A stretch of 41,152 nt of DNA, from the NCBI GenBank assembly GCA_009786985.1, contig WRGW01000106.1, forward strand, positions 1-41,152, in the 5' to 3' direction. This document shows positions 26,639-36,951 of this stretch, piece by piece (the first letter of the stretch is position 1; every line of letters starts with the position of its first letter). The translations under genes were made by a program, and so were the position numbers. The DNA is from Oscillospiraceae bacterium. GTDB taxonomy: Bacteria > Bacillota > Clostridia > Oscillospirales > Ruminococcaceae. The notes under the pieces are model-generated. The model saw nothing but the letters and a program-made list of their open reading frames with translations. It had not been told where the DNA came from and made no database searches.

Positions 26639-27145
26639 TTAATAATCGTTTTCGCTAAATCCGAAACTGTTTTCATCGCTATAAATATCAGCACCCATTA
26701 ACTCACCGCCTTCTGCATCGTAAACCGACGGAACAGCAGCAAACACATTCGTGCCGTATTTAACTAATTTGCCATCATTTGCATAAATCACGCCAGCCAT
26801 AAAGTCAAGCATTCTTCCAGTTGCTTCTTTACTGCCCTGCTCTGCGTTAATCATAACAACAGAACCTCTCTTAAATTCATCGGCAGCAGCTACAGCCACT
26901 TTGAGCCATTCTGTACCAACTAATTTTTGTCGTCTGAGTTTGCCAGATTTCATTGATTTTTCGACAAAACTTAAATTTGCCTCCCTTGTATCTTCTTCTT
27001 GACTGTAGTCTTCACCGTAACCATCGTTGTTGTAATCGTCATCATAATTAGGTTTTCTCACCACTGAACCCTCCATTTCATAATCTTCTTTTGAATCTTT
27101 CATCGTCAAAAATTCCCATGCTTTTCTACCCAAATTTGATTTCAC
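26639..27145 (-). CDS. sepF: Cell division protein SepF
   Basis: C-terminal SepF domain VVMINAEQGSKEATGRMLDFMAGVIYANDGKLVKYGTNVFAAVP, in the expected gene neighbourhood. Confidence 0.9.
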   Translation of the reverse strand: MKSNLGRKAWEFLTMKDSKEDYEMEGSVVRKPNYDDDYNNDGYGEDYSQEEDTREANLSFVEKSMKSGKLRRQKLVGTEWLKVAVAAADEFKRGSVVMINAEQGSKEATGRMLDFMAGVIYANDGKLVKYGTNVFAAVPSVYDAEGGELMGADIYSDENSFGFSENDY

Positions 27146-27233
27146 AATACCATACCCCCTCGTTACTTAATATCTATTATTTTTATTTATAATAACTGCG
27201 TTTATTGCAATTTATTAAACAGTTTAATTACGC

Positions 27234-27971
27234 TTATACTTTTGTTCGTTTACCGAATAAAGCAGTTCCGAGCCTTATAATTGTTGAACCATACGCAATA
27301 GCCGTCTCGTAATCATCAGACATTCCCATAGATAGCGTATCAATTTGTAAATTTGACGGAGCAAACGATTTCAAGTCTTCATACAACCGTTGCATCACAA
27401 TAAAATTGCTTTCAGAAGAACCGATTGGAGGAATTGCCATAAGCCCTCTAAGTCTAAGCCCCGAAAGTCTTAAAACAGTTTCAACTAACTCATTGAGATT
27501 TTCAGGAAACACACCACTTTTAGTGTCTTCACGCCCAACATTAACTTGAATCAAAACATCAATCACAAGATTGTGTAGCATAGCTTGGCGGTCAATTTCA
27601 AGTGCCAATTTTTCGCTATCAAGAGATTGAATCATGCTGACTTTGTTTATAATCTGCCTAACTTTATTGCTCTGTAATTTTCCGATAAAATGAATTTCAC
27701 ACTTGCGTTTGATTGAATAATCATTTTCTTTTTCCAAAAATTCTTGAACTCGGTTCTCGCCAATTAAGTCAATACCAAGCGAAATCGCTTGATTGACTAG
27801 AAAAGGCTCGATTGTTTTAGTTACAGCCATAATACGAACTCTTGAATTTTCAGATTCCACACGCCCGGTTTTGATTTTAGCTTTTTGGATGTTTTCGTTG
27901 ATTCGTTTAAGATTTTCTTTTAACTCTCCCGAAACGTTCAAATTATAAGCATCGCTACAAATCAAGTCCAT
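27234..27971 (-). CDS. YggS family PLP homeostasis protein
   Basis: VRIMAVTKTIEPFLVNQAISLGIDLIGENRVQEFLEK, IHFIGKLQSNKVRQI, LSMGMSDDYETAIAYGSTIIRLGTALFG. Confidence 0.94.
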   Translation of the reverse strand: MDLICSDAYNLNVSGELKENLKRINENIQKAKIKTGRVESENSRVRIMAVTKTIEPFLVNQAISLGIDLIGENRVQEFLEKENDYSIKRKCEIHFIGKLQSNKVRQIINKVSMIQSLDSEKLALEIDRQAMLHNLVIDVLIQVNVGREDTKSGVFPENLNELVETVLRLSGLRLRGLMAIPPIGSSESNFIVMQRLYEDLKSFAPSNLQIDTLSMGMSDDYETAIAYGSTIIRLGTALFGKRTKV

Positions 27972-29380
27972 AACACAACTTTCCCATCATACAGATTAAC
28001 ACCTTCGACTACGACATCATCAAATAGTCGCAAAAACCCTGGAGTTTCATCACTCTCTTCAATGATTACAAAATTTTCATTAGAACGCAACATATTTATT
28101 CTACGAAAATGGAGTATAAAGCCGCTACGGACAAATACACCACGCTCGCCGTCATCATTGAAAGTAACTGCACTTTGCGGAAGCCTAATTCCGTGATAAG
28201 TACCAAGCATCAATCGAACACTTGCCACTCGTTGTCTAACAAATTCTTCGTTAAGAACCTCACTTTCAAACACGAACACAGTATAACCATCGCCTTGGTC
28301 TTCTGAACGCACAACGCGTGCTGGTACAGACCGTGAGAAAGACCCCACACGCAATTGAACAGTATGGTCAGTCGCAATCCCTCTCACCCTATTAGTCGGA
28401 ATCACTGCTGCCATTCTCCATCTGTAATCATCAATCATTCTCCCAACTACATTGTCAGCTACCGGGAGAGATGGATTGATTGGATTTTTTATGATTTCTT
28501 CGATTCGCTCACGTGTAAGTGTGAGAGCGTCCCCCATATTCAATACACTCTCATATCCGTCAGCATTACCAACAAAATATCCAGCTTCGTTAGACCTAAG
28601 TTCTTGTAAAACACCAGATAATCTACTTTCAAGTGCCGTTACTTGATTTTTGTATTCAGCGATACGGGAGCTAATCTGTTCTATCGAAACACTTCCACGA
28701 AGTAAATTGATTTTTGTCTGTAACCCCAAATATTGACTCGCATACACCGACACCCTGTCATATTGAGCAGTTGCGATACTACGAAGCATTCTCGAATGCA
28801 CATCAGACATTTGTCCCGAAAACGCTTCAATTTGTGCACCAATCGCACCTTCAGAGTCGCCTCCGCTCACAAAATCCTCTGCATCAACAAGTACTTCAAT
28901 TCGCCTAGAAAGTTCAGTGATTCTCTGACGATTGTATTTTTCGCCTTCACTTTCATAAACTACCGCAATTACAGAATTGTTGGATAATTTCGCACCACAT
29001 CTATTAGTAAAAGAAATCACTCCGTTTCCAGTTCGAGAAATTTCACCAAACGCTTCAGAATGTACTTGCCTTTCATCGCGAATATACACACCCTTGAATA
29101 AAACAGTATCATTTCCAGTATAAAGCTGTGCAGTTTCAGTCACTATAGGATTACTTAAAAACGTGTGCAACTGGCTCGCTACAGTGGTCAAAAGAAATCC
29201 ACCCACTAAAATCCAAACAAGCCACATTGTTGTAGTGCTACTACGATGTGTTCTTGACCTTTTTAGGGGAGCAGTTGGAGTAGACGAATTTGGTATATCA
29301 AGTAAAGCTGATGTTCCAGTCGTAATGCTCTCAGTTAATCCTTCTCTATCCACTTTACTCGAAAAATTTGATTTTCGCAT
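27962..29380 (-). CDS. HlyD-like membrane-anchored protein of the ylm/division cluster
   Basis: Single N-terminal TM (TTMWLVWILVGGFLLTTVASQL), barrel-sandwich/coiled-coil layout; C-terminal GIRLPQSAVTFNDDGERGVFVRSG. Start ATG 29380 after GGGGGAGG. Confidence 0.7.
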   Translation of the reverse strand: MRKSNFSSKVDREGLTESITTGTSALLDIPNSSTPTAPLKRSRTHRSSTTTMWLVWILVGGFLLTTVASQLHTFLSNPIVTETAQLYTGNDTVLFKGVYIRDERQVHSEAFGEISRTGNGVISFTNRCGAKLSNNSVIAVVYESEGEKYNRQRITELSRRIEVLVDAEDFVSGGDSEGAIGAQIEAFSGQMSDVHSRMLRSIATAQYDRVSVYASQYLGLQTKINLLRGSVSIEQISSRIAEYKNQVTALESRLSGVLQELRSNEAGYFVGNADGYESVLNMGDALTLTRERIEEIIKNPINPSLPVADNVVGRMIDDYRWRMAAVIPTNRVRGIATDHTVQLRVGSFSRSVPARVVRSEDQGDGYTVFVFESEVLNEEFVRQRVASVRLMLGTYHGIRLPQSAVTFNDDGERGVFVRSGFILHFRRINMLRSNENFVIIEESDETPGFLRLFDDVVVEGVNLYDGKVVLWT

Positions 29381-29555
29381 TGCCCTCCCCCTTTCATCCT
29401 CCTTTTTGCCTTGACTTTTTATCACTATACATCTTTGAACACTTAGTCATAAAAAAGTAGTTGTAAAAAAAGCAAAGCTCTATATTTTATGTGCCTTTTC
29501 AACTTTGCCACGCTTTCTATTATATCACAACAATCGCATTATTTCAAGGGTTTTT

Positions 29556-30539
29556 TTAATTTTTTTTCGTTTTTTGTGAAAAAAATTCACTTTCTAAAAC
29601 AACGCTCGCTTTTTGAAAAATGTGAACGTATTTTGTATTTTCGTTCACGAACAATCGGTGAATCTGTTCGTTTTTACGAAACCATGTCAGTTGACGCTTT
29701 GCATAATTTCTTGTTTTCATTTTTAGAGTTTCTATGCACGAATCAAGTTCCGCAATACCGTTAAAGTATGGTAAAAATTCTTTATGCCCGATTGCTTGAG
29801 CAGCAGTACAAAATTCGCAGTTTATTTGATTTTTTTTGAATACAAATTTTCGTGCTTCTTCAATTAAACCGTTCGCAATCATCCCATCAACACGAACGTT
29901 AATTCGGTCGTACAACATCTGGCGTTCTTCAAATTCGATTGTGAACATGACAGGCTTTAGAGGTGAATGTTCGGAGGTGTTTTGAACAAATTCTGGTGAT
30001 TTTTCGCTTACGTTCTTGTTGGCGAGTTCCAATGCACGAATAATTCTTTTGGTATTGTTCATATGTAGGCGTGAATATGCCTCAAAGTCAACCTCGCGTA
30101 ATTTAGCGTGGAGAGCTTCATTACCATGGTTTTGTGCGAATTTGTACATTTTTTGGCGAAATTCTGGGTTTACTTTGGTTTCGCTAAAAGTAACATCATC
30201 AATAAGAGATGAAATGTACAAACCAGTTCCACCAACTATTACTGGAATCGCTCCACGACTTTCGATTTCAGCGATTTTAGTTTTCGCCAATTCAATCCAT
30301 TGTACCACTGAAAAAGATTGCTCAGGTTCAAGAATTGCGAATAAGTGGTGCGGAACTTCTGCCATTTCAGATGCACTTGGCATAGCAGTAGCAATATCCA
30401 TCCCTTTATAAACCTGCATTGAGTCGGCATTAACAATTTCGCCTCCAAATTTACGTGCAATGTCAATCCCAAGTTGTGATTTACCAGAAGCGGTAGCACC
30501 ACAGACTACGATAATTGGTGTTTTTTTATAAATGTTCAT
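29556..30539 (-). CDS. miaA: tRNA dimethylallyltransferase
   Basis: IIVVCGATASGKSQLGIDIARKFGGEIVNADSMQVYKGMDIATA, NTKRIIRALE, QAIGHKEF, RNYAKRQLTWFRK. Confidence 0.96.
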   Translation of the reverse strand: MNIYKKTPIIVVCGATASGKSQLGIDIARKFGGEIVNADSMQVYKGMDIATAMPSASEMAEVPHHLFAILEPEQSFSVVQWIELAKTKIAEIESRGAIPVIVGGTGLYISSLIDDVTFSETKVNPEFRQKMYKFAQNHGNEALHAKLREVDFEAYSRLHMNNTKRIIRALELANKNVSEKSPEFVQNTSEHSPLKPVMFTIEFEERQMLYDRINVRVDGMIANGLIEEARKFVFKKNQINCEFCTAAQAIGHKEFLPYFNGIAELDSCIETLKMKTRNYAKRQLTWFRKNEQIHRLFVNENTKYVHIFQKASVVLESEFFSQKTKKN

Positions 30540-32500
30540 ACAATTCGCTTAAACCTTTTCTCGAGTTCTTTTCGGGTGATTTTTTCCACAATCGGTCTAC
30601 CGTGAGGGCAATACCTTAAAGTTCCTGTTTCGTCTTCTAATATGCGATTTGCAAGTTGTTCGATATCAATAGATGATGTTTTATCTCCAGCTTTAACCGC
30701 CAAACGACAAGCAAATGAATGCAAAATTCGATTGATTGCCGAAACCTCGCTCCCCTGCCCTATTTGTAAAGTTTCGCCGATTTCAGTGAGCATTTCTTCG
30801 ATTTGCACAGCATCTTGTTTTTCAAGAATTGTAGGCATTGCAAGAACCAAAATACTTTCAGAAATTTTACTGGATTCAATTTTTATTCCAAGTTTATATA
30901 ACTCTTCCTGATTTTCGCATAAAATCCCACAAATCAAAATATCGAGTTTGATTTCAAGTGGTGATAACAATAATTGTGAATGCATTTTGAGTTCAGTTTT
31001 TAACCGCTCAAATTGTAGTCGTTCATCGGCAGCGTGTTTGTCAATTAACAACAACTCATCACCACGTTCACATATAATATAAGTTGAAAACAATTCTCCA
31101 ATTATACGAGTGTTATTTGTTTTTGAATTTAGCACTATTTGCGACTCGTGATGCTGTCCTGAAATCAAGACGCTTTCGTTAATTAATTTCTGTCGACAAT
31201 GCCCTAAATGGTCTGCATATTCCTCATTACGAACATCTTGTTTAGAATCTAGGTTTTTGCGTATAAGCGAATCATGGTTAATATATTTGTATTCTATTGT
31301 TATGTCCGTGTTTGTAACAGCTGGGGTAATAGGTTCGATTTCTCGGGCAGAAACCGCATACTCAGTCTTAGGAGACGCAAATGTAAGTATTTCTGATGTT
31401 TCGAGCTTTTCAGAATTTTTTGAAAATTCCGTGGGTTCAGCAGAAACAGCCCCGAAACTTTTATTTGTTTTATTCGCTTCTATATTTTCGGAGTTTACAC
31501 CAAGAATTGCAACACTATTCAAAAGTGCGTTTTTGACCGCTAAATTCACCGCATTAAAAACCGAACGTTCGTTTGCAAACTTCACTTCAGTTTTAGCGGG
31601 GTGTACGTTGGCATCAACGTCACCAGGATGAACTTTTATATTTAGCACACAAGCTGGAAATTTCCCGGTCATAATATTATTTTTGTATGCTTGTTCTACC
31701 GCTGCAGAAATGGTAGAAGAGCGTATATAACGAGAATTTACATAAAAATTTTGAAAAGTTCGATTACTTTTGACCAAAAGTGGTGCGGAAATACATCCAC
31801 TAACACTAATTCCATTTTGGGAATAGTCAACATAGAGCATACTTGCTGCTAATACCTTCCCGTAAATTGCATAAATCGCAGATGACAGCTTTCCATCTCC
31901 AGGAGTGACTTTCACGAGCTTATTATCGCGTACAAATCTAAAGGCAATTTGTGGATTAACTAGTGCCACCTTATCAATTATTGATTGTATGTAGTTGCCC
32001 TCAGTGACATCTTTTTTTAGAAACTTTAGTCTTGCTGGTAAATTGTAGAACAGCTCTCTAATCACAATCGTCGTTCCATCAGGACACCCAGCCTCCGAAT
32101 GTTTAATTTCATTTCCGCCCTCAATTTTGTAAGAAGTTCCGATTGTTGTATCAGCGGTCTTAGTCAATAAGCTAACCTTAGCAACCGCTGCAACAGAAGC
32201 CAAAGCCTCCCCCCTAAACCCAAGAGTCGCAATCGCACCTAAATCTTCACTTGTAGACACTTTGCTAGTTGCATGACGCAAAAAAGCTGTCGGACACTCA
32301 TCATAAGGAATGCCGACACCATCGTCACTTATTCGCAAAAAAGTAATTCCACCGTTTTGTATTTCAACGGTAATTGATTTTGCACCTGCGTCAATAGAAT
32401 TTTCGATTAGCTCTTTAACCACTGACGCTGGTCGTTCAATTACTTCACCTGCAGCAATGAGTTCAGCCACATTTTTATCGAGGAGTTTGATTTTCGACAT
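30536..32500 (-). CDS. mutL: DNA mismatch repair protein MutL
   Basis: MSKIKLLDKNVAELIAAGEVIERPASVVKELIENSIDAGAKSI, GFRGEALASVAAV, GTTIVIRELFYNLPARLKFLK; C-terminal RYCPHGRP. ATG at 32500 preferred. Confidence 0.96.
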   Translation of the reverse strand: MSKIKLLDKNVAELIAAGEVIERPASVVKELIENSIDAGAKSITVEIQNGGITFLRISDDGVGIPYDECPTAFLRHATSKVSTSEDLGAIATLGFRGEALASVAAVAKVSLLTKTADTTIGTSYKIEGGNEIKHSEAGCPDGTTIVIRELFYNLPARLKFLKKDVTEGNYIQSIIDKVALVNPQIAFRFVRDNKLVKVTPGDGKLSSAIYAIYGKVLAASMLYVDYSQNGISVSGCISAPLLVKSNRTFQNFYVNSRYIRSSTISAAVEQAYKNNIMTGKFPACVLNIKVHPGDVDANVHPAKTEVKFANERSVFNAVNLAVKNALLNSVAILGVNSENIEANKTNKSFGAVSAEPTEFSKNSEKLETSEILTFASPKTEYAVSAREIEPITPAVTNTDITIEYKYINHDSLIRKNLDSKQDVRNEEYADHLGHCRQKLINESVLISGQHHESQIVLNSKTNNTRIIGELFSTYIICERGDELLLIDKHAADERLQFERLKTELKMHSQLLLSPLEIKLDILICGILCENQEELYKLGIKIESSKISESILVLAMPTILEKQDAVQIEEMLTEIGETLQIGQGSEVSAINRILHSFACRLAVKAGDKTSSIDIEQLANRILEDETGTLRYCPHGRPIVEKITRKELEKRFKRIV

Positions 32501-32511
32501 AACACCATCAC

Positions 32512-33339
32512 TCAAGCTAACACTAATTGCCCGTCTGTAGCGTCAGCCAATTTTAGTTTTAGGCTCTCAAGCTCTTCTTGCATTTTTCTAATTTCGTCCT
32601 CTTTACGTGATGAAAATTCCGCAAAAGTTTTCTCGAAATTTTCAAGAGTTTCAGCTAATTTTTGATTTTCTTCTTCTTTAAGTGTGGCGACTTCGTTAGC
32701 TTCTCTAATTGCACTATTGTAAACATCCATCGCATGAGAATCCCAGACTTTTTCATGCTCAATTAGTTTAGAAATCAATTCATTTTGTGTCCTCTCTTTG
32801 GTTGCAGCAATGCTCACGAACTCCTCATTTGCATCATCACGGTTTTGGTTGACCCAAGTATTCCAATTTTCTTCATATTTCATGAGTTTGTTTTGTAACT
32901 CTGACATCTCTTGGTCTTTTAGCTTTGCGAGCTGTGCTAACTCGTCTGAAGCACTTCCATACATTTTCGTTGAATGTGAATCCCAATGTTTTTCAAATTC
33001 AGTGATTCTTTCTCTAAGTTCGTTATTTTCTTTTTCTTTTAAAGCAAAAATCTGCTCCATCTCTTTGACTGCACTTTCGTGAGTGTCTTTAGTCTCATAT
33101 TCTGCTTTTTGAATATCGCCTTCTAAATTTTCGATTTCAATTTTAGCTTTATCTAGCTTTTCCCACAAATGAAAAGCTACCATAGTAAGGATTTCAACTT
33201 CAGAACGCCTTCCCATACTGTTAGCAAATTCGTTAATCTTTTCTTCAAGCGTGTTTGCTAATTTGCTTATACGCTCTTGATTTTCATCAGTGCGTAAAAG
33301 ATAACTGCGATTTTTAATTTTGATTTGTAACGAAACCAT
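32512..33339 (-). CDS. ZapA-like cell-division protein fused to a repetitive coiled-coil tail
   Basis: N-terminus MVSLQIKIKNRSYLLRTDENQERISKLANTLEEKINEFANSMGRRSEVEILTMVAFHLWEKL resembles ZapA; tail consists of four 40-aa repeats. Start ATG 33339. Confidence 0.78.
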   Translation of the reverse strand: MVSLQIKIKNRSYLLRTDENQERISKLANTLEEKINEFANSMGRRSEVEILTMVAFHLWEKLDKAKIEIENLEGDIQKAEYETKDTHESAVKEMEQIFALKEKENNELRERITEFEKHWDSHSTKMYGSASDELAQLAKLKDQEMSELQNKLMKYEENWNTWVNQNRDDANEEFVSIAATKERTQNELISKLIEHEKVWDSHAMDVYNSAIREANEVATLKEEENQKLAETLENFEKTFAEFSSRKEDEIRKMQEELESLKLKLADATDGQLVLA

Positions 33340-33448
33340 AATTATGATTTTCCTTTCTGATTGCCACAAAAAAGTATCTTTAGTATCTTTTTACATCTTA
33401 CATCTTACATCTTAATAATCAAGAACTGCAAAAATTGTTTGAATATTC

Positions 33449-33483: not shown

Positions 33484-33631
33484 CTTCGCCCGCAAGAACC
33501 AACGCTGAGTGTCGGGGGTATTACACCTAAACTTTCAATAACTACCTACACTTACTATTATACCCCGATTGAAATAAAAAGTCAAGCCTTTTGGTTTGAA
33601 TTTTTTTTGAGATATACTTGTAGTTGAAAAT

Positions 33632-33726: not shown

Positions 33727-36700
33727 ATGGAGAGTCATGTACAGGATTATTTCGAAGCCGTTTGCGAGGCACGAAAGCTCGGAAATATTGAATCAACATA
33801 TACTAAACCTATAGCCGATTTGCTAATGAACTTCGGTTGTATTACTCGTGATTTGTCGGGAGAACGCAGTCGGCAAGCGGGTGAAAATATCGACATTAAA
33901 GTATGGCTTGAAGGTGCGGTCATAACAGAAATAGAACCTTTCGCAGGTGTTGAAGTCAAGAAAATAGGCGGCATTGATAAGAGGGCGAGAAGCCAAATAA
34001 AGAAAGAGGCTAATCTGTATGGTTATGCAATCTTAACGGACAACCTGTCGTGGCAATTTTGGCGTGCAGGCGAAGAAAAAATGTACGCCGGAATTCAGTT
34101 AATCGAGGAATTGCCCAACGGCGAACTCGTATTGAAACAAGAAAGCGTTGAACTATTCGTAACCTTAGTAAACGACTTCTTTTTACAATCACCTACAAAA
34201 ATTAAATCTTCAAATAAACTTGCGGAATATATGGCTATTCATGCGAGAACAATTCGCTCCGTAATCACAGGAATACTTAAAGAAGATAAAGATGGTTTAC
34301 CTCTCATAAACGACAAACAAGAAAGACTTCCTATGTTCCCAGAATTACATGGTCTGTACAGCAGAATAAAAATGGATTTGCGTCCGTTGTTGAATACTCG
34401 CAGTTTTGCAGATATGTACGCTCAAACAATCGTATATGGATTGTTTATTGCTCGATATAACGATGCCAAAACTAAAATTTTTAATAGATATGAAGCTATC
34501 GGGAAATTAAAAAAGGAGTCGGCATTACTCAACAGATTTTTTACTCATATAGCAAGCACAGAGGAACATCACCCGACTCTTGATGCGGTGGTTGACAAAT
34601 TATGCTCGTTGTATCAAATTTGCGATATTTCAGCGTTGCTCGACCATGAAAATAATGGCGATACAATCGTACATTTTTATGAAAATTTTTTGGCTTTTTA
34701 TGACCCAGAGTTGCGAAAATCTTTGGGAGTATTCTATACTCCATATCAAGCAGTGCAATATTTAGTTTCAATGGTTGATAAACTTCTTATCAAAGAATTT
34801 GGGATAGAGGGTGGCTTATCTAATAACGAACAAATGCAAGTAACCGTTCCAACAGAGCCATATATACACAGAGAGAAAGAACATACTACGAAAAAAATCA
34901 CTGTCCCGAGGGTAGCAATACTTGACCCCGCTTGCGGAACAGGCACGTTTCACGCTGAAATAATCAAGTATATCAAAAATACGTACTTTTCGGGGGCAAA
35001 AGAACCTTTTTATAAAGATTACATCTTAAAAGAGAACGGCTTATTATCACGCATAATCGGTTTTGAAATTATGATGACGAGTTACGTTGTCGCCCATTTG
35101 AAAATTCGCCGTACTATCTATGAAACACTCAATAATACTCCCGAAACACTAATCCCGACAAACATCTACTTAACTAACACTCTCACACCGCCCAATACAG
35201 ATGTAGAGCAAAACGGTCAGATGTCATTATTTGACTTTTCGGCGGCTATTTCTGACGAAGCATACAAAGCTGATACGTGGAAGGCTCGCAGACCGATAAA
35301 AGTCATTATAGGTAATCCGCCTTACCTTGCGGCTTCTACTACTCCGTTTGATATTTCAGCATATAGAATGGAAGCAGACGGTGTAACAAAGCTACAAGAA
35401 CGTAACTCCAAATGGCTTGGCGATGATTATGTAAAATTCTATCGTTTTGCCGAGCGAATCATCAACAAAAACGGCGAGGGTATTCTTGCTTTTGTTTCTA
35501 ACAATGGATTTTTAGATAATCCGACTTTCAGAGGCATGAGAGCCAGTCTTTTACGTACTTTTGACAAGATTTTTGTGGTCAATTTACATGGAAGTGCAAA
35601 CAAACAAGAGAAGTCCCCAAACGGTAGTAAAGACGAAAACATTTTCAATATCATGCAAGGCGTATCACTTTTTGTAGGCGTGAAAACGACTACCGTTGAA
35701 AAATGGGCGAAGGTGTATCACTGCGATTTATGGGGACGGCGTGAACAAAAATTTCGTGATTTGCAGGAGGGAGATATAACTTTTACGGAAATAACCCCCG
35801 ATTCTAAAATGGCATATTTTATTCCTCAAAACAATGCAGATAACGACTCTTACGAAAAGGGCGTTAGTATAGCAGAACTGCTACCTGTAAACGTGGTAGG
35901 TGTGGTTACTGCACGTGATTCTTTGTGTATCAAAAAAACACGCAAAGATATTGAACTCGTGTTGAAAGAATTTCAAACGCACGACACAGAACGATTGCGT
36001 TCGCAGTATAATTTAGGCAAGGATACTCGAGACTGGTCTGTAGTAGGAGCCCAAAACGATATTGCGTTTCTTGATGGAGACATAATTCAAATAGCGTATC
36101 GACCTTTCGACAACAGATATACCTATTTTACGGGGCGGTCAAAGGGATTTCATTGTATGCCACGTGGTAAGGTTATGAAACACATTCTGTCATCATTTCA
36201 AACGCCAATAGGAAAAAATATCGGTTTGATTTATGCACGTGGCGATTCCACTCCTAATGAATTTTCGATGGTATCCGTTAGCGACAAGCCTATCGAAGCC
36301 AGATTTACCGTTGCCCAAACTGCTGGTATTGCTTACGTTGCCCCTCTCTACACATACAACAAACTCGAAGACTGTTGGCAACCTAACTTCAATTCTGACG
36401 AACTCGCAAAGCTAACCCAACACATGACTTTCGAGCCGTCTGCAATCGAAATATTCGATTATATCTACGGTATTCTCCACGACTCAACATATCGTGAACG
36501 CTTCAACGAATTTCTCAAGCGTGACTTCCCACGCGTGCCATTCATCAACGCTCCGAAGTCTAACGAAAGCGATTTCCATGTCAGTGAGACTATGTTTCGA
36601 GAATACGTCAAAGCGGGAGAAAGGTTACGCAAACTTCATCTTATGCAGGAGAAAGTCACTGCGGAATTGCGGCTAGAACCGAATACATCTGATGATTTAG

Positions 36701-36951
36701 AAATCGGTGCAATCAAGTACAAGAATGGAGTTCTGCACTTGAACGCTAACAAGCAAATTCACGGCATTCCAGAAGACGTGTGGACGTTTCGGATTGGTGG
36801 GTATCAAGTTCTTGATAAGTGGTTTAAGTCGCACAAGGGTGAAACGCTGACGATTGAGGATTTCGAGCATATCTGTAACGTGGCGGGGCTGTTGGCGGAG
36901 ACGATTAAGGTGCAGAAGGGGTTGCGGGGGTTGCACGTTGGGCATCTTTGA
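33727..36951 (+). CDS. Fused restriction nuclease / N6-adenine DNA methyltransferase (type IIG, type ISP-like)
   Basis: 1074 aa; N-terminal GENIDIKVW...PFAGVEVKKI (PD-ExK-like), MTase motif I LDPACGTGTFHAEII, motif IV IIGNPPYLAAS, C-terminal specificity region (VYHCDLWGRREQKFRDL, RPFDNRYTYFTGRSKGFHCMPRGKVMKH). RBS AAGGAG. Confidence 0.88.
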   Translation: MESHVQDYFEAVCEARKLGNIESTYTKPIADLLMNFGCITRDLSGERSRQAGENIDIKVWLEGAVITEIEPFAGVEVKKIGGIDKRARSQIKKEANLYGYAILTDNLSWQFWRAGEEKMYAGIQLIEELPNGELVLKQESVELFVTLVNDFFLQSPTKIKSSNKLAEYMAIHARTIRSVITGILKEDKDGLPLINDKQERLPMFPELHGLYSRIKMDLRPLLNTRSFADMYAQTIVYGLFIARYNDAKTKIFNRYEAIGKLKKESALLNRFFTHIASTEEHHPTLDAVVDKLCSLYQICDISALLDHENNGDTIVHFYENFLAFYDPELRKSLGVFYTPYQAVQYLVSMVDKLLIKEFGIEGGLSNNEQMQVTVPTEPYIHREKEHTTKKITVPRVAILDPACGTGTFHAEIIKYIKNTYFSGAKEPFYKDYILKENGLLSRIIGFEIMMTSYVVAHLKIRRTIYETLNNTPETLIPTNIYLTNTLTPPNTDVEQNGQMSLFDFSAAISDEAYKADTWKARRPIKVIIGNPPYLAASTTPFDISAYRMEADGVTKLQERNSKWLGDDYVKFYRFAERIINKNGEGILAFVSNNGFLDNPTFRGMRASLLRTFDKIFVVNLHGSANKQEKSPNGSKDENIFNIMQGVSLFVGVKTTTVEKWAKVYHCDLWGRREQKFRDLQEGDITFTEITPDSKMAYFIPQNNADNDSYEKGVSIAELLPVNVVGVVTARDSLCIKKTRKDIELVLKEFQTHDTERLRSQYNLGKDTRDWSVVGAQNDIAFLDGDIIQIAYRPFDNRYTYFTGRSKGFHCMPRGKVMKHILSSFQTPIGKNIGLIYARGDSTPNEFSMVSVSDKPIEARFTVAQTAGIAYVAPLYTYNKLEDCWQPNFNSDELAKLTQHMTFEPSAIEIFDYIYGILHDSTYRERFNEFLKRDFPRVPFINAPKSNESDFHVSETMFREYVKAGERLRKLHLMQEKVTAELRLEPNTSDDLEIGAIKYKNGVLHLNANKQIHGIPEDVWTFRIGGYQVLDKWFKSHKGETLTIEDFEHICNVAGLLAETIKVQKGLRGLHVGHL

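What the first reader, a model, noticed from the sequence alone, without database searches (positions are those of the whole stretch)
32512..33339. ZapA-like protein with four 40-residue repeats in its coiled-coil tail
After a ZapA-type N-terminal domain the tail divides into four in-register 40-aa units: HESAVKEMEQIFALKEKENNELRERITEFEKHWDSHSTKM / YGSASDELAQLAKLKDQEMSELQNKLMKYEENWNTWVNQN / RDDANEEFVSIAATKERTQNELISKLIEHEKVWDSHAMDV / YNSAIREANEVATLKEEENQKLAETLENFEKTFAEFSSRK. Typical ZapA proteins are about 100 aa. The exact periodicity, with recurring E-K-x-W-D-S-H, suggests a ruler-like or multivalent FtsZ-bundling scaffold. It lies directly upstream of mutL-miaA, with its stop overlapping the mutL start region.
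Basis: partly seen in the sequence, partly recalled or inferred. Interest (0 to 1): 0.65.

Follow-up and report, generated by a model that had tools for sequence, protein, structure and literature searches.

The report
ZapA with long modular coiled-coil tail
A bacterial cell-division protein (ZapA) that is normally about 110 residues long carries here a rod-like tail built from exact 40-residue units, whose number changes from 2 to 5 between related species and which ends in a conserved short peptide, suggesting that one gut-bacterial genus reshaped a common FtsZ cross-linker into a long-reach one.

Summary
Confirmed, with corrections. The gene is on the minus strand (33339 to 32512, stop included; 275 aa). 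Residues 1-85 are a true ZapA domain: Pfam ZapA 38.7 bits against a cut-off of 23.8, and the AlphaFold2 model's six best PDB matches are all ZapA. The tail holds four gap-free 40-residue units. Relatives keep the register: the unit occurs 2, 3, 3, 3, 3, 4, 4 and 5 times in eight species, always 40 apart; a homologous 50-residue version occurs in eight more.

Of 71 genomes of the genus, 61 yield a complete ZapA, all 192-486 aa (median 304), against a median near 117 aa in the family and order. Downstream lie mutL, miaA, hlyD, yggS, sepF and divIVA.

Most likely this is an FtsZ cross-linker whose straight helical rod (about 6 nm per unit) sets reach and displays a tip ligand. FtsZ binding and the rod are inferred. 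The strict 'ruler' idea is weakened by 2.5-fold length variation within the genus. The tip resembles a sliding-clamp motif but lacks its fifth-position Phe. A new variant of a known kind, of moderate interest.

The parts
32512..33339 (-). zapA-like gene, 275 aa plus stop
   Evidence: ORF; Pfam ZapA 38.7 bits, cut-off 23.8
33088..33339 (-). ZapA head domain, residues 1-84
   Evidence: Pfam residues 5-96; AlphaFold2 E2-8 E11-17 H21-41 H47-128; PDB matches are ZapA
32962..33081 (-). 40-aa unit 1 (residues 87-126)
   Evidence: PSSM score 82.4 bits
32842..32961 (-). 40-aa unit 2 (residues 127-166)
   Evidence: PSSM score 70.9 bits
32722..32841 (-). 40-aa unit 3 (residues 167-206)
   Evidence: PSSM score 71.6 bits
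32602..32721 (-). 40-aa unit 4, the terminal unit (residues 207-246); a block like it (YExxFDxYxxxK) recurs in most genus tails
   Evidence: PSSM score 68.9 bits; tails
32533..32601 (-). non-repeated end of the long helix (residues 247-269)
   Evidence: helix 133-269 in the model
32515..32535 (-). conserved C-terminal tip DGQLVLA (residues 269-275), largely disordered in the model
   Evidence: tip census 58 of 61 plus L150; column conservation; pLDDT below 50 at 271-275
33557..33585 (-). candidate promoter for zapA, TTGACT-17-TATAAT (11 of 12)
   Evidence: consensus match only
33350..33358 (-). candidate Shine-Dalgarno AGAAAGGAA upstream of the ATG at 33339
   Evidence: read from sequence
30536..32500 (-). 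mutL, 11 nt downstream of the zapA stop
   Evidence: Pfam DNA_mis_repair and MutL_C
29556..30539 (-). miaA
   Evidence: Pfam IPPT
27962..29425 (-). HlyD-like protein
   Evidence: Pfam HlyD_2
27237..27986 (-). yggS-like PLP-binding protein
   Evidence: Pfam Ala_racemase_N
26642..27166 (-). sepF
   Evidence: Pfam SepF 46.5 bits
25249..26400 (-). divIVA
   Evidence: Pfam DivIVA 79.1 bits

Best explanation
It is the sole detected ZapA of this bacterium, with an enlarged tail. The head dimer binds FtsZ filaments as in other ZapAs (inferred from homology). The tail is one long, nearly straight alpha-helical coiled coil made of 40-residue modules, each 11 helical layers long (about 6 nm), so modules can be added or lost without breaking the hydrophobic seam (period measured; helix predicted; straightness inferred). 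The tail links heads over a longer span than usual and/or carries the conserved tip peptide DGQ[LM]T[LI] some 20-60 nm from the FtsZ-bound head to meet a partner (inferred). The natural analogue is the E. coli ZapA-ZapB layer made in one chain (inferred). Reach, not an exact spacing, is what evolution appears to adjust.
For: ZapA domain by profile and fold. Exact 40-aa register, 2/3/3/3/3/4/4/5 copies in eight species, with orthologous units mostly in matching slots and the species mostly in supported groups. Homologous 50-aa version in eight sister species. Hydrophobic period 3.625 in the 40-aa group (40/11 = 3.636) and 3.575 in the 50-aa group (50/14 = 3.571), away from the heptad 3.5. Continuous helices 47-128 and 133-269 in the model. 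Tip conservation. Division-gene context. One ZapA match in G000 and in nearly every genus genome.
Against: Nothing here shows FtsZ binding, oligomeric state or a tip partner. The model is a monomer with pTM 0.30, so rod geometry is not tested. Tail length and period vary widely within the genus (192-486 aa), many tails show no clear unit, and long tails arose elsewhere in the family and class; a loosely constrained spacer would look similar. Two of 61 orthologues (L127, L151) lack the tip.
Confidence: 0.6

Rival explanations
1. Strict ruler: an antiparallel dumbbell tetramer in which repeat number fixes the spacing between cross-linked FtsZ filaments (about 6 nm per unit).
For: Characterised ZapAs form antiparallel dumbbell tetramers that make FtsZ ladders (PMC12754632, PMC12216130). 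Units change in whole 40-residue steps.
Against: Full antiparallel overlap of such tails is untested. Unit number changes between close species, and other genus tails have neither period. It does not explain the conserved tip at the far end.
Confidence: 0.2
2. The tail is a passive, drifting coiled coil; only the head matters and the repeats are neutral duplications.
For: Coiled coils expand easily; tail length and period vary widely; long tails also arose in other lineages.
Against: Exact register kept while copy number changes from 2 to 5; conserved aromatic and acidic positions (Y/F29, E30, W/F33, D34); long tails in all 61 complete genus orthologues; tip nearly invariant while the preceding coil varies.
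Confidence: 0.2
3. The tip is a clamp-binding motif that ties ZapA, and so the Z-ring, to the DNA sliding clamp DnaN.
For: Q-[LM]-[ST]-[LI] matches the first four positions of QL[S/D]LF; PolC of this genome ends QMSLFDM and MutS holds QIDF; a full QINLF lies at the end of ZapA of L053; the motif is internal in 17 genus members, so a free carboxylate is not required.
Against: Position 5 is never Phe in the genus and is absent in 15; loss of that Phe abolishes or strongly weakens clamp binding in measured peptides (PMC12309361). No paper in the library held both ZapA and 'clamp-binding motif'.
Confidence: 0.08

Closest known systems
ZapA (Pfam PF05164; E. coli 4p1m, P. aeruginosa 1w2e/1t3u, K. 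pneumoniae 9isk, G. stearothermophilus 2mmv)
   Same: Head domain by sequence and predicted fold; functional residue R13 of E. coli corresponds to R11 here (alignment; role of R13 in PMC6213154); a helical C-terminal tail.
   Different: Tail of about 190 residues in four 40-aa units instead of a short coiled coil; a conserved tip peptide not noted in the solved ZapAs.
ZapB (coiled-coil partner of E. coli ZapA)
   Same: A coiled coil attached to ZapA that reaches away from the Z-ring is the proposed analogy.
   Different: Here it is fused in one chain; no sequence relation was tested or claimed; ZapB is reported absent from Gram-positives (PMC8687745).
ZapJ of Streptococcus
   Same: Shows that Gram-positive ZapA can have a partner other than ZapB (PMC8687745).
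   Different: Confined to streptococci; unrelated gene; no such partner identified here.
Long-tailed ZapAs of other genera (L118, L207-L211, L215-L217)
   Same: ZapA head plus long tail, 244-427 aa; L207 and L210 share the tip (GQLTL / GQLML).
   Different: The others end in a different conserved tip, PxLxW-like; none was shown to have 40-aa units.

Membership tests
ZapA (PF05164) | Domain score above the curated cut-off | tested here: met
   38.7 bits against 23.8
ZapA (PF05164) | ZapA head fold | tested here: met
   Top six Foldseek PDB matches are all ZapA, TM by target 0.66-0.80, probability 1.00, though E-values are only 0.013-0.17
ZapA (PF05164) | Functional Arg at the FtsZ-binding groove (E. 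coli R13) | tested here: met
   R11 in the window protein; R or H in nearly all rows of A1
ZapA (PF05164) | Dumbbell tetramer through the C-terminal coiled coil | not testable with these tools
   Only monomer prediction on hand
ZapA (PF05164) | Binds and bundles FtsZ at midcell | not testable with these tools
   FtsZ is present in the genome; binding needs an experiment
DnaN clamp-binding motif QL[S/D]LF | Q at position 1 and L/I/F at position 4 | tested here: met
   59 of 61 genus tips
DnaN clamp-binding motif QL[S/D]LF | F (or L) at position 5 | tested here: not met
   Position 5 is C, D, A, E, R, S, Y, V or absent, never F or L
ZapB | Sequence homology to ZapB | not tested
   Only a functional analogy is proposed

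The most novel reading that the evidence does not exclude
In this genus ZapA has become a one-chain Z-ring adaptor: the head holds FtsZ and the conserved tip, carried tens of nanometres away on a modular rod, binds a partner outside the Z-ring layer (for example on the chromosome or replication machinery), doing the job of ZapA plus ZapB in bacteria that lack ZapB.
Probability: 0.22. Interest if true: 0.7.

Novelty: new variant of a known kind. Interest (0 to 1): 0.42.

Why it matters
ZapA is a widely conserved FtsZ cross-linker, and how cross-linker length shapes the Z-ring is hard to test because the characterised ZapAs are all short. A natural series with 2, 3, 4 and 5 modules of identical length is a ready-made length series for FtsZ ladder experiments, and the conserved tip gives a bait for finding a Gram-positive ZapA partner.

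Tried and rejected
DNA-level tandem repeats or an assembly artefact: rejected (relatives carry the same units). Chance or generic coiled-coil periodicity: rejected. A C-terminal degron or PDZ ligand needing a free carboxylate: unlikely, because 14 genus members carry 11 or more residues after the motif (plus L150). Enrichment of Q[LMI]x[LIMF] in the last 30 residues of 161 outgroup ZapAs (28 found, 7.9 in shuffles) was not used as evidence: most hits lie inside coils (QIEL) and the sequences are related. PDB search with the whole single sequence found only chance matches; the head profile was needed. The first genome-contig scan found nothing. A pattern search over two genomes was uninformative. 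The open-frame lengths printed by the genome search overstate gene lengths, so lengths were recomputed from the domain start.

Full report
What is there. A Shine-Dalgarno-like AGAAAGGAA precedes it, and a good promoter match reads towards it at 33585-33557. The first 85 residues are a ZapA domain: Pfam 38.7 bits against a cut-off of 23.8; a profile of the relatives' heads finds solved ZapA structures 2mmv, 4p1m, 9isj and 1t3u with E-values of 3e-8 to 2e-6; the AlphaFold2 model of the whole chain (12 sequences, mean pLDDT 82, pTM 0.30) shows strands 2-8 and 11-17, helices 21-41, 47-128 and 133-269, and a disordered end, and its six best PDB matches are all ZapA (E-values 0.013-0.17, probability 1.00).

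The repeat is real. Among lags 20-60, lag 40 stands alone, and no shuffle of 300 reached it, even when the hydrophobic/charged pattern was kept. A profile grown from the four units over eleven genus proteins finds them at residues 87, 127, 167 and 207. No DNA-level repeat remains, so the duplication is old.

Relatives keep the register. In the nearest group the unit occurs 2 times (G021), 3 (G010, G343, G006, G329), 4 (window, G003) and 5 (G327), always exactly 40 apart. G330, which groups beside G003 with weak support, has a 192-aa protein in which only one unit is recognisable. Nearest-neighbour comparison mostly puts first units with first units and last with last, and unit 4 of G327 with unit 3 of the window protein, so whole modules were gained or lost. 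A sister group uses a 50-residue version of the same unit (2 or 3 copies). Conserved unit positions include A4, E7, L22, L26, an aromatic at 29, E30, W/F at 33 and D34.

The geometry is unusual. Hydrophobic residues in the 40-aa group recur every 3.625 residues and in the 50-aa group every 3.575, close to 40/11 and 50/14, not the heptad 3.5. Such a period is close to that of an undistorted alpha helix, so the rod should be nearly straight and each added unit keeps the seam in phase (inference). At 0.15 nm per residue a 40-aa unit is about 6 nm.

The phenomenon is genus-wide. A profile search of 71 genomes of the genus finds a ZapA in 62 (E up to 0.01; 40 of 41 good-quality genomes), a single match in all but one of them. 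The 61 complete proteins are 192-486 aa long, median 304, whereas 80 relatives from the family and order have a median of 116.5. Long tails also arose outside the genus: L207 and L210 share the tip, and another set (L118, L208, L209, L211, L215-L217) ends in a different conserved PxLxW-like tip.

The tip. The motif Q-[LMITV]-x-[LIF] was found in 58 of 61 by the automatic census of the last 40 residues; L150 also has it further in (RYIQTTFDAESE), making 59; L127 and L151 lack it. Anchored on the Q, columns outside the search pattern are also conserved (G or V before it, T or S two after), while the residues just before them vary. In the 17 QTTF members the motif is followed by 2 or more residues, in 14 of them by 11 or more, so it is an internal short motif rather than a carboxyl-end signal. 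It resembles the sliding-clamp motif: PolC in this genome ends AQMSLFDM and MutS has QIDF. But measured clamp peptides depend on the Phe at position 5 (PMC12309361), which no genus member has. The clamp reading is therefore kept as a minor possibility.

Context. In the window the order along the minus strand is zapA, mutL, miaA, hlyD, yggS, sepF, divIVA, then further genes. In relatives the order is dus, lipoprotein, cdaA, cdaR, zapA, U32 peptidase, (transporter), mutL, miaA and, where the contig reaches, hlyD, yggS and divIVA. The window and G330 lack the U32 gene between zapA and mutL, and in the window a Type ISP restriction-modification gene lies upstream instead of cdaA-cdaR. The neighbourhood supports a division role but does not prove one.

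Known biology. Solved ZapAs form antiparallel dumbbell tetramers whose dimer heads bind FtsZ and cross-link filaments into ladders (PMC12754632, PMC12216130). E. coli residues R13, R46, T48, E51 and I56 matter for function (PMC6213154); R13 matches R11 here, and the others are not clearly conserved in the alignment. ZapB is reported absent from Gram-positives, and Streptococcus uses ZapJ instead (PMC8687745).

Verdict. Best reading: a long-reach ZapA whose module number sets reach and whose tip meets an unknown partner.

Noticed in passing
L118, L208, L209, L211, L215, L216, L217 (C-termini): Another set of long-tailed ZapAs in the family ends in a different conserved peptide, e.g. DMPDLSWTLEV, DMPNLSWADTL, DMPNLNWTENL, so conserved tips arose more than once.
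   Followed up: partly
L053 (G294), C-terminus: An ordinary-length ZapA of 130 aa ends SNQINLFSDDKNEG, a match to the general clamp motif QxxLF.
   Followed up: no
L195, L193, L194, L197, L198 and others: cdaA (diadenylate cyclase) and cdaR (YbbR) sit directly upstream of zapA in relatives, a possible link between c-di-AMP genes and division.
   Followed up: no
window 33727-36951 (+): Type ISP restriction-modification gene, divergent from zapA, where relatives have cdaA-cdaR; probably an insertion or rearrangement.
   Followed up: partly
window 33391-33414: Short tandem repeat, 3.4 copies of TTACATC, just upstream of zapA.
   Followed up: no
G000:C77 (L185): MutS of this genome has QIDF without a following Phe in the region where MutS usually carries its clamp motif, so four-residue forms may be used here.
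   Followed up: no
L151 (G345) and L127 (G349): Two genus members lack the tip; L151 is also a very long branch in the tree.
   Followed up: no
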